This document shows positions 8,023-59,416 of a stretch of DNA of 64,000 nt, piece after piece. The stretch's first letter is position 1; each line of letters begins with the position of its first letter. The notes beneath the pieces are model-generated. The model worked only from the letters and a program-made list of their open reading frames with translations, ran no database searches and was not told where the DNA came from. The DNA lies in assembly GCF_009017255.1 (NCBI RefSeq), contig NZ_WBZB01000013.1:62001-126000 (forward strand). The letters are read 5' to 3'. Origin of the DNA: Alkaliphilus serpentinus. GTDB taxonomy: Bacteria > Bacillota > Clostridia > Peptostreptococcales > Natronincolaceae. Position numbers and translations under genes: made by a program.

Positions 8023-8060
8023 CTTAAATCTTCCTTTCTTTTAAGTGAGGGAATTAGTAA

Positions 8061-8115
8061 TTTTCACTTTTTATTTTACACTTTTCACTTTTCACTTTTC
8101 ACTTTTCACTTTTCC
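8061..8115. repeat. Heptanucleotide tandem repeat (CTTTTCA type)
   Basis: At least six near-identical 7-bp units (TTTTCAC) stand in tandem, with degenerate units at the left end. The array fills the gap between the lipoprotein gene and yifB. It is one member of the period-7 family seen in many intergenic regions of this window. Confidence 0.9.
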
Positions 8116-8160
8116 TTATATCTATAACTATGATAATATAAATCCCAATAGAAAACAAAA

Positions 8161-12356: not shown

Positions 12357-12370
12357 GATAAAACCCCCCT

Positions 12371-12410
12371 TTGAAATTGAAAATTGAATATTGAAAATTT
12401 AAAATTAAAG
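12371..12410. repeat. Heptanucleotide tandem repeat (TTGAAAA type)
   Basis: Degenerate 7-bp units (TTGAAAA, TTGAATA, TTGAAAA, TTTAAAA, TTAAAGA) stand in tandem just upstream of rnhB. It is the inverted counterpart of the array at 12565-12603; the two flank a 154-bp segment that also contains a CTAAAACA/TGTTTTAG hairpin (12512-12549). Confidence 0.85.
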
Positions 12411-12564
12411 ACAACATTAAAAGAATAGAGATGTTGTACTACGTAAAACTTTTAAGCTGAAGATTGCTAGCAGAAAATTAAAGACGAAAGTTATAATAGA
12501 TTATAAAAGCTCTAAAACAACAAAACATTCTAATGAAGTGGTGTTTTAGCACTTTATTCTATGG

Positions 12565-12603
12565 TTTTCATTTTCCATTTTTCATTTTCAACTTTCAATT
12601 TGT
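12565..12603. repeat. Heptanucleotide tandem repeat (TTTTCAT type), overlaps end of rbgA
   Basis: Five 7-bp units (TTTTCAT, TTTCCAT, TTTTCAT, TTTCAAC, TTTCAAT) run to 12603. The rbgA stop codon (TGA, 12595-12597) lies inside the last unit, so the array ends or interrupts the gene. Confidence 0.85.
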
Positions 12604-18963: not shown

Positions 18964-18989
18964 TTTGAAAACCCCTTTCGGAAATTGAT

Positions 18990-19140
18990 AAGTAGATAAC
19001 CCAATCTCTGATTGATGTTAGTCACTTAGCTAGGGATTTGTCATTAAAATTTCAATGGTTTTATATGGGTATTTTATGACAAATTAACTAGCTTCCTGAA
19101 TCTTTTCTAAATGTTGAATGTTGAATGTTGAATGTTGAAT
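18990..19140. repeat. Dispersed structured intergenic element, copy A
   Basis: The left 51 bp (18990-19040) match copy B (43632-43682) at 43 of 51 positions without gaps. A hairpin follows: AGCTAG (19028-19033) with ATTTGTCAT pairs with ATGACAAAT and CTAGCT (ending 19093). The right end is a heptanucleotide array of four GTTGAAT units (19113-19140). It fills most of the ftsY-smc gap. Another short repeat (two 14-bp units of AATTACTCATT type) is at 19198-19225. Confidence 0.8.
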
Positions 19141-19234
19141 TGATGTGGAAATTTTCATAGAAAATTTCTTATTTTTTCTTAAACAATTATCCATATTAAT
19201 TACTCATTTCTAATTACTCATTGGTTTTCTAAAT

Positions 19235-29119: not shown

Positions 29120-30115
29120 TTAAATGCACCATTTAACCACTGATGATCCCCAGGTTAAGCCACCTCCAAAGGCAACTAAAACCACAATATCCTCCTTTTT
29201 AATATTTCCCATACGATAGGCTTCGTCTAAGGCAACAGGAACAGATGCTGCCGACATGTTGCCATATTTATCAAGGTTTACAAAGACCTTTTCTATAGGA
29301 AGCTTTAATCTTTTGGCTGCAGCATCGATAATCCTTATATTGGCCTGATGGGGCACTAAATAATCAATATCATCGATGGTAAGATCACATTTCTTTAAGG
29401 CCTCCATAGCAGCTTTACCCATTACTCTGACTGCGAACTTAAAAACCTCACTACCATCCATTTGAACATAGTGGAGTTTTTTTTCCAGGGTTTCTAAAGA
29501 GGCGGGCATTCTTGAGCCTCCTGCTGGCTGGGTTAAAACTTCTCCACTACTACCATCAGCTCCAAGATAGGAGGATAGTATTCCATATCCTTCCTCCACC
29601 CTTTCTACTACTACCGCCCCGGCACCATCACCAAATAATACACAGGTGTTGCGGTCTTCCCAGTTTAGGATTTTTGATAGGGTTTCTGCCCCAATTATTA
29701 GAGCATTTTTATAAAACCCATTCTTAATAAACTGCTCACTTATGGTTAAGCCATATAAAAATCCTGAGCAAGCAGCCTCGATATCAAGGGCAGCCGCCTT
29801 AGTAGCACCCAAATTTTTCTGCACGATACAAGCAGTCGATGGAAATGCCATATCCGGCGTAACGGTGGCAACGATTATTAAGTCTAAATCTTCCGCCTTT
29901 AAGCCAGCATCCGCCATAGCCTTTAGTGCGGCTTCTGTTGCCAAATCAGAGGTGGCTTTATCAGCTTCTACAACCCTTCTACAGGATATTCCTGTTCTGG
30001 TTCTAATCCACTCATCTGTAGTATCCACCATTTTTTCAATATCATAGTTTGTTACTTCTTTTTCCGGTAATGCACTTCCTGTACCAGTAATGCCAACGGA
30101 ATACCAATTATTCAA
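29120..30115 (-). CDS. fabH: 3-oxoacyl-ACP synthase III
   Basis: FabH starts fatty acid synthesis by condensing acyl-CoA with malonyl-ACP. The 331-residue protein has the triad Cys116 ([11 protein letters not shown]), His256 ([10 protein letters not shown]) and Asn286 ([10 protein letters not shown]). It overlaps plsX by 8 nt, indicating coupled translation. Confidence 0.98.
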
Positions 30116-31115
30116 CTATATCAGCTCCTAGATTTTTGATTTCCTCTTCTATTTTTTTAACAACTTGGTTTTCAACTAAAGTTTTTGCTTGGCGAATAGC
30201 ATTCATAATTGCCTTTGCATCAGAACTACCATGGGCCTTCACCAAGGCACCCTGAACCCCTAAAAATGGAGCCCCTCCATATTCTGTATAATCAAAGCGT
30301 TTTTTAAACCCCATAAGGCCAGATTTTATCAATAGGGCCCCTAGCTTTCTTAATGGATTTTTAGTAAGCTCTTCCTTCAAAACTTTAAATATCATCATAG
30401 CTACACCCTCTGTAAGCTTTAAAATTACGTTTCCAGTGAAGCCATCACACAAAATTACATCTGTGTATCCAGAAGGAATATCCCTTGCCTCAACATTACC
30501 CTGGAAGTTAAAGGGGGCCTTTTTACAAATCTTGTAGGCTTCCTTGGTGCTTTCATTACCCTTTCCTTCCTCAATGCCTATGTTTACAAGACAAACTCTT
30601 GGAGTCTTTATGCCTAAAACCATTTCTGCATAGATGCTTCCCATTATCCCAAACTCAATATAATTTCTTGCTTTAATATCCGTATTAGCTCCTCCATCAA
30701 TTAATACAGAGGCTCCCTTATAGTTAGGGATCACTGGCGCTAGAGCTGGCCTGTCAATTCCTTCAATTCTCCCTAATACAAACAAGCCTCCTGCCAATAG
30801 GGCTCCTGTATTACCAGCAGATATAATTGCATCTGCCCTTCCATCCTTAACAATATTTAAAGCAACCACCATAGAAGAATCCTTCTTTTTTCTAATGGCA
30901 GCCACTGGTTTATCTTCGTTTTCTACGATCTCACTAGTATGTACGATCTCGATTTTTTCCTTAGGATATTGAAATTTTTTTAATTCTGAATCTAATGTTT
31001 TCTTATCTCCTGTTAAAATTAAATTAACACCATATTGATTAACAGCATCAACGGCACCCTTCACCGTTACCTTAGGACCATGATCCCCTCCCATGGCATC
31101 TAATACGATTTTCAT
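30108..31115 (-). CDS. plsX: Phosphate acyltransferase PlsX
   Basis: PlsX converts acyl-ACP to acyl-phosphate, the donor for PlsY in phospholipid synthesis. The 335-residue protein starts [12 protein letters not shown] and has [36 protein letters not shown] and [15 protein letters not shown]. It follows fapR after a 204-bp gap that holds an inverted pair of heptanucleotide repeats. Confidence 0.98.
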
Positions 31116-31152
31116 TTTTAATCATTCCTTTCCCTTACAACTAAAAGATAAA

Positions 31153-31180
31153 TTGAAAATTGAAAATTGAGAATTGAAAG
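31153..31180. repeat. Heptanucleotide tandem repeat (TTGAAAA type)
   Basis: Four units (TTGAAAA, TTGAAAA, TTGAGAA, TTGAAAG) lie upstream of plsX. They are complementary to the array at 31281-31315, so the two could form a long hairpin around a 100-bp centre. Confidence 0.85.
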
Positions 31181-31280
31181 TAAAAGCATATAATTGATCG
31201 CTACAGAAAACATTATTAATTAGTTCCGTTTATTTAATAGCTAGAAAATCACTAGAATTATCAGAATTTCTTCTTTTAAA

Positions 31281-31315
31281 TTTTCCATTTTCCATTTTCA
31301 ATTTTCAATTTTTAT
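31281..31315. repeat. Heptanucleotide tandem repeat (TTTTCCA type)
   Basis: Five units (TTTTCCA twice, TTTTCAA twice, TTTTTAT) end five bases from the fapR stop codon. This is the inverted partner of 31153-31180. Confidence 0.85.
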
Positions 31316-31319
31316 TTGA

Positions 31320-31889
31320 TTATCTTGCCTTTATCGCCACCAAAATAAACTTCCCTCGAAAGACTTGGTTTTGATTTACAGAGATTTTAACATGAACAAA
31401 GTGCTTATTACCCCTTACCCTTACAACCTCTGCTTTAGCCACCAGCTTTTCGCCAGCATGGACGGGGCTTAAGTATTTTATATTAGAAACACCCGTTAAA
31501 GCAACCTCTGCATCAATAACTGACATTGCTAAGGATTCTGCCTGCGAGAAAATATGATGACCCCTTACTAGGTTGGTTTTCTTAAAGGCCATACCCTCGG
31601 TAGTTTCAAGGATGGAGATGCCACTGGTTCCTAGATTAAGATCAATTAGTTCTCCTATAATCTCTGTACCTATAATACTTCTAACCTTTTGATAGTTCTT
31701 CTCTGCCACAAGCTTTACCCTTTCCCTTAGTTCAGGAATCCCTAGCTCAAGGCGATCTAAGCGTATTGTTTGTATGCTTACATTAAATTTCTCAGATAGC
31801 TCCTCATCTGTCACAAAGGGATCTTCTGTTAATAACTCTAACAGCTCCTTTTGTCTATTTGATTTACTTATTCTTCCCATACCCTTCAC
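31320..31889 (-). CDS. fapR: Fatty acid and phospholipid biosynthesis repressor FapR
   Basis: FapR represses fab and pls genes and is released by malonyl-CoA. The protein (189 residues from GTG) has a DeoR-like helix-turn-helix ([20 protein letters not shown]) followed by [17 protein letters not shown] and a hotdog-fold effector domain ([20 protein letters not shown]). The GTG at 31889 is chosen because GGAGTGA lies 5 nt upstream; an ATG 9 nt further in lacks a well-spaced site. Its own promoter is overlapped by a FapR operator, implying autoregulation. Confidence 0.95.
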
Positions 31890-31918
31890 ATATATCACTC
31901 CAATAGTTAGTACTTATA

Positions 31919-35866: not shown

Positions 35867-35871
35867 CGAAT

Positions 35872-35900
35872 AAAGGGTTGATCCTATGGATCAACCCTTT
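35872..35900 (+). terminator. Terminator of tmcAL
   Basis: A 13-bp perfect stem AAAGGGTTGATCC / GGATCAACCCTTT with a 3-base loop begins 5 bp after the stop codon. The hairpin at 36044-36070 is a near copy. Confidence 0.85.
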
Positions 35901-35916
35901 AAAGTCATCTAGATTA

Positions 35917-36042
35917 CAGACTGATCAAAAGTCCTTAGATTCGAGGCGCAAGCAAAACCAGCGATTGCGGCGTATACAGAAAATACGTAAGATTGCTGAT
36001 TTTGTGAAGCAACAAAGAATATGAGGGTTTTTCATCAGTCTG
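35917..36042. repeat. MITE-like palindromic element with terminal inverted repeats
   Basis: CAGACTGATCAAAA (35917-35930) is matched by TTTTCATCAGTCTG at the right end (36029-36042), a 14-bp terminal inverted repeat with one mismatch. The interior is also palindromic: CAAAACCAGCGATTG near 35956 pairs with the AGATTGCTGATTTTG segment near 35991. The 126-bp element has no open frame and would fold into one long imperfect hairpin. It lies between tmcAL and rpmA, enclosed by two related hairpins. Confidence 0.78.
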
Positions 36043-36043
36043 A

Positions 36044-36070
36044 AGGGTTGACCCTATTGGATCAACCCCT
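36044..36070 (-). terminator. Hairpin downstream of rpmA, near copy of the tmcAL terminator
   Basis: AGGGTTGACC pairs with GGATCAACCCCT (one bulge). It lies 13 bp after the rpmA stop codon. The T-tract on the minus strand is poor, so termination is likely but weaker than at 35872-35900. Confidence 0.55.
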
Positions 36071-36082
36071 ATTGTTTATAAA

Positions 36083-43587: not shown

Positions 43588-43631
43588 ATTTAAACCAATC
43601 CTTTCGCATCAAGGAAATGAAAAGTGAAAAT

Positions 43632-43774
43632 AAGTAGATGACCAAATCTCTGATTTGAGTCAGTCACTTAGCTAGGAACTTGATACAAACTTTCCTTGTC
43701 ATACTTCCGTAGTTTGTAGCGAATTAACTAGCACCCTTAATTCAACATTCAACATTTAACATTCATCATTAACT
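43632..43774. repeat. Dispersed structured intergenic element, copy B
   Basis: The left 51 bp match copy A (18990-19040) at 43 positions without gaps. The hairpin is AGCTAG (43670-43675) with TACAAACT (43684-43691) pairing to AGTTTGTA (43711-43718) and CTAGC (43728-43732). The stem sequence differs from copy A but is again complementary. The right end is a heptanucleotide array of five units (ATTCAAC, ATTCAAC, ATTTAAC, ATTCATC, ATTAACT; 43740-43774). Confidence 0.8.
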
Positions 43775-43794
43775 TAATCTTTTTACTATAGCCC

Positions 43795-52239: not shown

Positions 52240-52488
52240 CTACAATCTATTAAATATAACTACTGCCAAAAGCAAACCAATTAAACTTGCTACATTTATT
52301 TTAATAAGTAAAGAAAAATTTAAATAAATAACACTTAAATCTAACTGAAAGTTATTGATCCCTAAAGGACCCGGTCCATAGGATAAAAAGGGAAGCAGAT
52401 CCCCCAGGGCATCCCCTATTAAACTGCCTAAAACAACCCCTGTTATGATTAATAATACCAAAAGCCATGGATTACGATATTTGCTCAT
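52240..52488 (-). CDS. DUF4321 small membrane protein
   Basis: The 82-residue protein has two hydrophobic segments (about 9-30 and 58-80) and the internal GDLLPFLSYGPGPLGINNFQ that I associate with DUF4321. It is encoded just before maf-radC-mreBCD in Clostridia. Function unknown. Confidence 0.75.
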   Translation of the reverse strand: MSKYRNPWLLVLLIITGVVLGSLIGDALGDLLPFLSYGPGPLGINNFQLDLSVIYLNFSLLIKINVASLIGLLLAVVIFNRL

Positions 52489-52510
52489 GTGTAAAAATGC
52501 CCCCCCAACA

Positions 52511-52545
52511 GAAAATTGAAAATGGAAAATTGAAAGTTGAAAATT
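52511..52545. repeat. Heptanucleotide tandem repeat (GAAAATT type)
   Basis: Exactly five 7-bp units: GAAAATT, GAAAATG, GAAAATT, GAAAGTT, GAAAATT. A short run of eight Cs and this array mark the upstream end of the maf-mre operon. Confidence 0.92.
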
Positions 52546-52591
52546 ACTTGAAGAAAATGTTCTAAGTGTTTTAAGAATTCATATAATCAAT

Positions 52592-52605
52592 GTTGAATGT
52601 TGAAT
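52592..52605. repeat. Two-unit heptanucleotide repeat (GTTGAAT)
   Basis: Two GTTGAAT units followed by TGATG and GAAATTTCTT, matching the right flank of dispersed element copy A (19127-19170). It may be a remnant of that element. Confidence 0.6.
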
Positions 52606-52684
52606 TGATGAAGAAATTTCTTAAGCAAATTCCGACAAGGTTTTTAGTTTTAAATTTTCTGACTGCAATTTACCCTCATCATTT

Positions 52685-52719
52685 TTAACTATTCACTATT
52701 AACTATTAGTTATTCACTA
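52685..52719. repeat. Heptanucleotide tandem repeat (TTAACTA type)
   Basis: Five units: TTAACTA, TTCACTA, TTAACTA, TTAGTTA, TTCACTA. It ends one base before the stop codon of the Gx-family gene. Confidence 0.9.
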
Positions 52720-52720
52720 C

Positions 52721-59236: not shown

Positions 59237-59274
59237 AAATAATCAGTCCTTCCTTGGAAGCTAATGGTATGTAT

Positions 59275-59302
59275 ATTAAATGTTAAATGTTGAAGATTGG
59301 AT
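59275..59302. repeat. Heptanucleotide tandem repeat (ATTAAAT type)
   Basis: Units ATTAAAT, GTTAAAT, GTTGAAG, ATTGGAT lie just upstream of the GHKL ATPase gene. Short and degenerate. Confidence 0.65.
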
Positions 59303-59381
59303 TTGTCTAATCAAAAGGTTTATTATTTTTATAGCTTGCATTTACTGAAGGTATATCTATCATTACCAATCCTTAAGTATC

Positions 59382-59416
59382 ATTTTCAATTCTTAATTCT
59401 TAATTCTCAATTTTCT
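59382..59416. repeat. Heptanucleotide tandem repeat (ATTCTTA type), overlaps end of PHP gene
   Basis: Five units: ATTTTCA, ATTCTTA, ATTCTTA, ATTCTCA, ATTTTCT. The TGA stop of the PHP gene (59407-59409) lies in the fourth unit. Confidence 0.88.

What the first reader, a model, noticed from the sequence alone, without database searches (positions are those of the whole stretch)
52511..52545. Family of degenerate heptanucleotide tandem repeats in intergenic DNA
At least twelve intergenic loci hold tandem arrays with a fixed 7-bp period: 8061-8115, 12371-12410, 12565-12603, 19113-19140, 31153-31180, 31281-31315, 43740-43774, 52511-52545, 52592-52605, 52685-52719, 59275-59302 and 59382-59416. The unit sequence differs between loci and orientations (TTTTCAC, GTTGAAT, GAAAATT, TTAACTA, ATTCTTA), but the period does not. 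Arrays are confined to gaps or gene ends, often at operon boundaries. This recalls cyanobacterial STRR heptanucleotide repeats. I know of no description in Clostridia. A duplication mechanism constrained to 7 bp, or a protein binding with 7-bp spacing, are possible explanations.
Basis: partly seen in the sequence, partly recalled or inferred. Interest (0 to 1): 0.62.

Follow-up and report, generated by a model that had tools for sequence, protein, structure and literature searches.

The report
Facing seven-base repeats flank DNA insertions
In this clostridial genome short runs of a repeated seven-base word mark the two ends of small pieces of extra DNA lying between genes, and almost always point toward each other, which suggests that DNA insertion or copying, rather than a gene switch, makes this common but unexplained kind of bacterial repeat.

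Summary
In 864 kb (26% of the genome) 75 period-7 arrays pass a strict test, all between genes; no other period from 3 to 20, except the harmonic 14, gives more than 8.

Three facts change the picture. (1) Within 60 nt of a gene boundary, 49 of 51 arrays carry G on the strand reading from the gene into the gap, whichever way the gene points; in gaps with both orientations the G strands face each other (26 of 26), though their units are unrelated. (2) Array gaps are lineage-specific insertions: fapR-plsX is 204 nt here, 8-25 nt in 18 of 18 scored relatives; all 5 testable window gaps exceed those of G017 and G007. (3) C is nearly excluded from the G strand.

The same placement is published for GGGNATC repeats of Xanthomonas and Nostoc; units here mostly hold one or two G, so quadruplexes cannot be its general cause. 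Best reading: heptamer arrays are junctions of small insertions, grown by 7-nt iteration. The enzyme is unknown; Ku, reverse transcriptase and Y1 transposase do not track array content.

The parts
8061..8115 (-). Array, unit TTTTCAC on +; G strand is -. Gap 8023-8160.
   Evidence: gap not testable for insertion (no syntenic pair in the fetched stretches)
12357..12594 (.). Inserted gap with facing arrays 12374-12406 (AAATTGA, G strand +) and 12565-12598 (TTTTCAT, G strand -); 238 nt here, 19 nt in G017 and 15 nt in G007.
18964..19234 (.). Gap with array 19110-19140 (AATGTTG, G strand +), a 9-bp stem at 19148-19168 seven nt inside it, and element X at 18988-19097 on the outer side.
   Evidence: insertion not testable
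31116..31319 (.). Insertion between fapR (31320-31898) and plsX (30108-31115) with facing arrays 31150-31177 (AAATTGA, G strand +) and 31280-31312 (ATTTTCC, G strand -).
   Evidence: 204 nt here, 8-25 nt in 18 of 18 scored family genomes; gene names
43588..43794 (.). Insertion between minE and the methylglyoxal synthase gene: array 43740-43770 (ATTCAAC, G strand -), element X 43630-43738, short TTTTCAC-like run.
   Evidence: 207 nt here; 18 nt G017, 20 nt G007, 22 nt N. peptidivorans; names
52489..52720 (.).
   Evidence: syntenic gap 259 nt (52462-52720) here against 71 (G017), 64 (G007), 70 (N. peptidivorans)
59237..59406 (.). Gap with weak array 59276-59291 (TTAAATG, G strand +) and array 59388-59412 (AATTCTT, G strand -), facing.
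   Evidence: 170 nt here; G017; G007; N. peptidivorans, only 33 nt shorter

Best explanation
The arrays are the two junctions of small DNA insertions, mostly about 90-220 bp longer than the empty gap, that entered gene junctions in this lineage. At each junction the chromosomal strand whose 3' end runs into the insert carries tandem heptamers made of A, G and T with almost no C. Shown: fixed period, intergenic confinement, longer gap than in relatives, facing orientation independent of gene direction, unrelated units at the two ends, near-absence of C. Inferred: the heptamers arise by iterative 7-nt copying (slippage) of the strand that grows toward the inserted, sometimes hairpin-bearing, DNA, at integration or at later replication, and then drift in copy number by 7-nt steps. 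Some inserts are or contain dispersed hairpin elements (my families H and X). The polymerase and the cause of the C exclusion are not known.
For: 75 of 75 arrays intergenic, no comparable period. Inward G strand in 49 of 51 arrays within 60 nt of a gene, 35 of 36 at 3' and 14 of 15 at 5' boundaries; stable over score thresholds 9 to 20 (68:4, 60:2, 49:2, 33:1, 20:1). Facing in 26 of 26 gaps, 35 of 35 pairs. Units of a pair no more alike than chance, 4.43 against 4.70. Controls: background skew at 5' boundaries is opposite; segments of array-free gaps 185 inward, 259 outward. Insertion: 204 nt against 8-25 nt in 18 of 18; own array gaps longer in 5 of 5 (G017), 5 of 5 (G007), 3 of 3 (N. peptidivorans), array-free gaps median difference 0, 0, -1. 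Relatives obey the rule: G007 6:0, G017 9:0; a set mostly of Omnitrophota 15:2. C exclusion: 8 C in 2342 bases, T>C 0 against A>G 44. 21 of 32 AATGTTG array inner ends are followed by a perfect stem, 15 exactly 7 nt inside, background 10%.
Against: The enzyme was not found. Many inserts have no clear hairpin: fold z of centres averages -1.56 (n=24) against -0.33 in controls (n=60) but spans +1.34 to -5.64, and the stem association is weak in G017 (1 of 6) and G007 (0 of 3). Of 5 array gaps found in the relatives, 3 are longer than the own gap (272 v 66, 635 v 168, 636 v 557) and 2 are not (51 v 57, 556 v 557). Recurrent units (AATGTTG in 22 of 75) fit mobile elements better than local slippage. 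Slippage does not explain the C exclusion. Rehm et al. found their repeats at unusually stable sites, 83% shared between two xanthomonads, and generally not near mobile elements (sections 13, 14). One of 5 opposite pairs in G007 and 1 of 6 in the Omnitrophota set face away.
Confidence: 0.45

Rival explanations
1. The arrays are built-in ends of non-autonomous mobile elements of REP/REPIN or MITE kind: outer heptamer array, 7-nt linker, palindrome, moved by an unidentified enzyme; the differing units at the two ends come from recombined or diverged families.
For: AATGTTG arrays share an inner linker and palindrome; element X has 19 full or partial copies, with an array within 90 nt of its 5' side in 11 of 19 and of its 3' side in 8 of 19, in four of these starting at the terminus itself; gaps are inserted.
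Against: Paired ends carry unrelated units; centres are mostly unrelated; Y1 transposase (PF01797) does not track array content: none in rich G034, 25 in poor G001; no target duplication could be tested.
Confidence: 0.3
2. Plain replication slippage favouring 7-nt steps in neutral intergenic DNA (the view of Mrazek et al. 2007, known to me through MacGregor 2015).
For: Fixed period 7 only; literature reports 7-nt length changes between related strains (MacGregor section 10).
Against: Does not predict inward G strands, facing pairs, longer gaps or T>C 0 against A>G 44.
Confidence: 0.12
3. Selected RNA feature: transcripts leaving the gap toward either gene are free of G with C every 7 nt, like a Rho loading site or an unstructured leader, and insulate the insert.
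For: G strand inward means G-free outward RNA; Rho (TIGR00767) is over the cut-off in all four rich genomes.
Against: Rho is over the cut-off in 38 of 41 genomes, rich or not; a terminator just before plsX inside its operon should be harmful; cyanobacteria, which show the rule, lack Rho as I recall it (no call settles this).
Confidence: 0.08
4. Binding sites of a protein with 7-bp spacing.
For: Constant spacing; MacGregor proposes S1, Csp or Csr proteins for TAACTGA repeats (abstract).
Against: 21 consensus units in 75 arrays and no tie to gene direction.
Confidence: 0.03

Closest known systems
GGGAATC / GGGGA(C/T)T heptameric repeats of Xanthomonas and Nostoc (Rehm et al. 2015, PMC4692102; abstract, sections 13, 14, 16 and passages seen)
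   Same: Period 7, mostly non-coding; G strand on the sense strand within 50 bp after stops and on the antisense strand within 50 bp before starts, i.e. inward; 70 and 75 convergent pairs in two xanthomonads.
   Different: Here units are AT-rich, mostly with one or two G and many different kinds, so quadruplexes cannot form in general; here the gaps are lineage-specific insertions, whereas theirs were 83% shared between two species and called stable; Nostoc had few pairs.
TAACTGA direct repeats of Beggiatoaceae, Cyanobacteria and Bacteroidetes (MacGregor 2015, PMC4679880; abstract, introduction, part of results, sections 10 and 24 read)
   Same: Intergenic heptamers, patchy distribution; some relatives have shorter gaps without repeats.
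   Different: One favoured unit with one G and one C, and in the main genome mostly sense-oriented just before start codons, a different rule; no facing pairs described in what I read.
Cyanobacterial STRR heptamers (recalled, Mazel et al. 1990; not read)
   Same: Tandem degenerate heptamers between genes.
   Different: Unit and orientation not compared here.
REP/REPIN and MITE elements (recalled)
   Same: Dispersed hairpins with a GTAG-like linker in many AATGTTG array ends; some inverted pairs of such ends.
   Different: Heptamer arrays outside the palindrome; Y1 genes do not track arrays.
GATAGRA satellites of Chloroflexus and GGACCGG / MTYCTGA elements of Geobacter metallireducens (passages)
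   Same: Heptamer tandem repeats in many loci.
   Different: Fixed units; no orientation rule seen in the passages.

Membership tests
Intergenic heptanucleotide repeats (LSSR / STRR class) | Tandem 7-nt units in excess of other periods | tested here: met
   75 arrays at period 7 against at most 8 at other periods from 3 to 20, 14 aside
Intergenic heptanucleotide repeats (LSSR / STRR class) | Mostly outside genes | tested here: met
   75 of 75 at score 12, 94 of 96 at score 10
Rehm-type oriented heptamers | G strand inward from both gene ends; convergent pairs | tested here: met
   49 of 51 and 35 of 35
Rehm-type oriented heptamers | G-tracts able to form quadruplexes | tested here: not met
   Consensus units mostly hold one or two G; only one of 21 has GGG
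TAACTGA repeats | Unit TAACTGA, sense strand before starts | tested here: not met
   Unit absent among 21 consensus units; arrays near starts carry the G strand antisense in 14 of 15
REP/REPIN | Palindrome with GTAG-like tetranucleotide, many copies | tested here: inconclusive
   21 of 32 AATGTTG array ends have a stem; linker only GTAG-like; other unit classes not examined for stems
REP/REPIN | Cognate Y1 (RAYT) transposase | tested here: inconclusive
   7 PF01797 matches here, but content does not track arrays over 41 genomes; flanks of the two genes inspected show no arrays or H ends
MITE | Terminal inverted repeats and target duplication | tested here: inconclusive
   Paired array units unrelated; no close empty site to test duplication
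Telomere-like or NHEJ/RT end addition | Ku or an intact reverse transcriptase in every rich genome | tested here: not met
   Ku in 1 of 4 rich genomes (G017) and 6 others; RVT_1 absent in G007 and G034, only pieces with stops here, one 96-aa piece in G017

The most novel reading that the evidence does not exclude
Bacteria of several phyla have a process that extends 3' DNA ends at breaks or insertion junctions by iterated heptamers poor in C, formally like telomere addition on both sides of a lesion, before the ends are joined around captured or mobile DNA. Intergenic heptamer repeats would be the scars of that process.
Probability: 0.12. Interest if true: 0.9.

Novelty: new variant of a known kind. 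Interest (0 to 1): 0.6.

Why it matters
Heptamer repeats were reported as the commonest class of long simple repeats in most genomes rich in them (Mrazek et al. 2007, as cited by MacGregor 2015) and have no agreed cause. The facing rule was known for G-rich repeats and discussed in terms of quadruplexes. Finding it in AT-rich units without quadruplex potential, at both gene ends, and showing that the repeats bracket lineage-specific insertions, points to an insertion or copying process and gives concrete tests. If right, the repeats record where short DNA entered bacterial genomes.

Tried and rejected
Y1 (HUH) transposase as generator: PF01797 in 41 genomes does not follow array content, and the flanks of the two such genes that I looked at hold no arrays. 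Ku-dependent end joining: absent from three of four rich genomes. Reverse transcriptase: no intact copy in own, G007 or G034. Inter-cistronic RNA stem or fold-back copying: needs matching units in a pair, not seen here, G017 or G007, though seen in the Omnitrophota set (6.00 against 4.34). Local base composition as source of the rule: opposite at 5' boundaries, control segments outward more often. Selection for extra stop codons after genes: the rule also holds at 5' ends, where it would be meaningless. Known RNA families: no Rfam match at gathering threshold in the window.

Limits. The G strand is named after the majority of G over C, which slightly favours few C; arrays with equal G and C were left out of strand counts. 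Three of 75 arrays were dropped from the boundary count because the stretch ended before the next gene. At score 10, T>C is seen in 3 of 91 own arrays against A>G in 24. Variants within an array are not independent events. The richness measure is one pattern; its backward control also has many hits (36 here, 165 in G007). G007, G017 and G034 stretches lie on contigs known to hold pattern hits or the syntenic genes. One of the 11 loci pooled as Omnitrophota (L108) is titled Lentisphaerae, and 3 of 24 arrays there are genic. G015 was left out of the fapR-plsX count because its plsX match is split. Over 80 mreB loci of many taxa period 7 gave 19 arrays, but period 9 gave 14, so the excess is not universal.

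Full report
What was checked. The window lies in an unnamed assembly of 3.29 Mb in 83 contigs. Its MreB is 85% identical to that of Natronincola peptidivorans, family Natronincolaceae, order Peptostreptococcales, class Clostridia. The closest genomes among 20 of the family searched are G017 and G007, with PlsX 83% and 78% identical.

Observation. All twelve listed places hold heptamer runs; nine pass a strict self-match test. In 864 kb, 26% of the genome, period 7 gives 75 arrays, all between genes, whereas no other period from 3 to 20, except the harmonic 14, gives more than 8.

Units. There are 21 consensus units in 75 arrays; the commonest, AATGTTG or its complement, is in 22. On the G-bearing strand of 63 arrays (score 14 or more) there are 8 C in 2342 bases, and 56 arrays have none. 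Among within-array variants A>G occurs 44 times, G>A 30, T>G 22, G>T 20, A>T 18, T>A 14, G>C 5, A>C 2 and T>C never. At score 10 or more, T>C is in 3 of 91 arrays and A>G in 24. Strand-symmetric mutation would give T>C about 0.6 times as often as A>G for these base counts. In G007 plus G017 there are 3 T>C and 41 A>G. The Omnitrophota set does contain C (84 of 733 bases), with G in excess. So the exclusion of C is strong in this clade and only a G excess there.

Orientation. For each array I asked which strand carries G when read from the nearest gene boundary into the gap. Within 60 nt it is the inward strand in 49 of 51; beyond 60 nt it is 11 of 21. It holds at 3' boundaries (35 of 36) and at 5' boundaries (14 of 15). 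In convergent and divergent gaps it is 9 of 11, the two exceptions lying 120 nt or more from the gene. In 59 gaps with 102 arrays of score 9 or more, 26 gaps hold both orientations, and in all 26 the G strands face each other (35 of 35 pairs); their units are no more alike than random pairs (4.43 against 4.70 matches of 7). Control segments in array-free gaps are inward in 185 and outward in 259, and the background skew at 5' boundaries is opposite to the rule.

Other genomes. Within 60 nt the inward count is 6 of 6 in G007 and 9 of 9 in G017; facing pairs are 4 of 5 and 11 of 11. A set mostly titled Omnitrophota gives 15 of 17 inward and 5 of 6 facing pairs; there the paired units do match (6.00 against 4.34). 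Rehm et al. 2015 (PMC4692102; abstract, sections 13, 14 and 16, passages) describe the same placement for G-rich heptamers in two xanthomonads and Nostoc, with 70 and 75 convergent pairs in the xanthomonads. Against the link, Rehm et al. report that 83% of repeats are shared between the two xanthomonads and that the sites are unusually stable. MacGregor 2015 (PMC4679880; parts read) reports for TAACTGA a different, mostly sense-before-start placement, and some relatives with shorter gaps and no repeats.

Insertions. The fapR-plsX gap is 204 nt here and 8-25 nt, hardly more than a ribosome-binding site, in 18 of 18 other family genomes that could be scored; 20 were searched, the own included, and one (G015) was dropped for a split match. 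In synteny with G017, G007 and N. peptidivorans, 5 of 5, 5 of 5 and 3 of 3 own array gaps are longer (by 96-219, 94-223 and 33-189 nt), while array-free gaps differ by a median of 0, 0 and -1 nt; no array gap is shared. In reverse, the relatives' five array gaps are longer than the own gap in three (272 v 66 with facing arrays, 635 v 168, 636 v 557) and not in two (51 v 57, 556 v 557). Two of the seven strict array gaps of the window (8023-8160 and 18964-19234) had no syntenic counterpart among the fetched stretches.

What is inserted. Centres between facing arrays are 13 to 158 nt. They fold somewhat better than control gap middles (mean z -1.56, n=24, against -0.33, n=60), with wide spread. 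Of 32 inner ends of AATGTTG arrays in the own sample, 21 are followed by a perfect stem of 5 bp or more, 15 of them exactly 7 nt inside, against 10% of random gap positions. Element X, about 110 nt, has 19 full or partial copies; 11 of 19 have an array within 90 nt on the 5' side and 8 of 19 on the 3' side, in four of these (L141, L144, L153, L157) starting at the terminus with differing units. In G017 and G007 the stem association is weak (1 of 6 and 0 of 3), so the hairpin is not a general requirement.

Mechanism. The geometry is that of two chromosomal 3' ends, each lengthened by heptamers toward the inserted DNA. Iterative 7-nt copying of the strand growing into the insert would give this, with independent units at the two ends. 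Ready-made arrays carried on mobile elements would also place arrays at both ends and better explain recurrent units, but not unrelated ends. Plain slippage explains neither facing nor insertion. Four candidate proteins were tested over 41 genomes: Y1 transposase, Ku, reverse transcriptase and Rho; none separates rich from poor genomes. Richness was judged by hits to one pattern: 69 here, 129 in G007, 80 in G017, 30 in G034, and at most 5 in each of the other 37; the backward control pattern, itself heptamer-like, also hits rich genomes (36 here, 165 in G007).

Verdict. The arrays are real, belong to the known heptanucleotide class, and are a new variant of it: AT-rich, nearly C-free on one strand, facing, and bracketing lineage-specific insertions.

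Noticed in passing
window 18988-19097 and 43630-43738; L140-L158: Element X: a dispersed ~110-nt sequence with two foldbacks ending in CTACTTAT-like letters, 19 full or partial copies in the genome, no Rfam match in the window at gathering threshold.
   Followed up: partly
own-genome gaps, e.g. L037 17907-18110, window 35867-36082: A second large family of non-coding repeats containing CAGACTGATGAAAAAC-like ends inside terminator-like palindromes; the largest cluster of similar gaps had 76 members, possibly mixing families.
   Followed up: no
L033 13019-13786: Y1-type transposase gene with GGGACAGG / CCTGTCCC-like repeats in its flanks, without heptamer arrays.
   Followed up: no
G000:C34:77032-77660: Reverse-transcriptase fragments with internal stops, apparently a decayed gene.
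   Followed up: no
G007:C7:21-89, G007:C42:159-178, G007:C46:62-81: Heptamer hits lie close to the numbered start of contigs, as if the arrays broke the assembly.
   Followed up: no
PMC6749651, passages only: Chloroflexus aurantiacus is reported to have 22 satellites of GATAGRA, again a heptamer without C on its G strand.
   Followed up: no
L099 6978-7052, L111 8621-8692, L125 12484-12666: In Omnitrophota loci paired arrays share the same unit, so there they are true inverted repeats, unlike in the own genome.
   Followed up: partly
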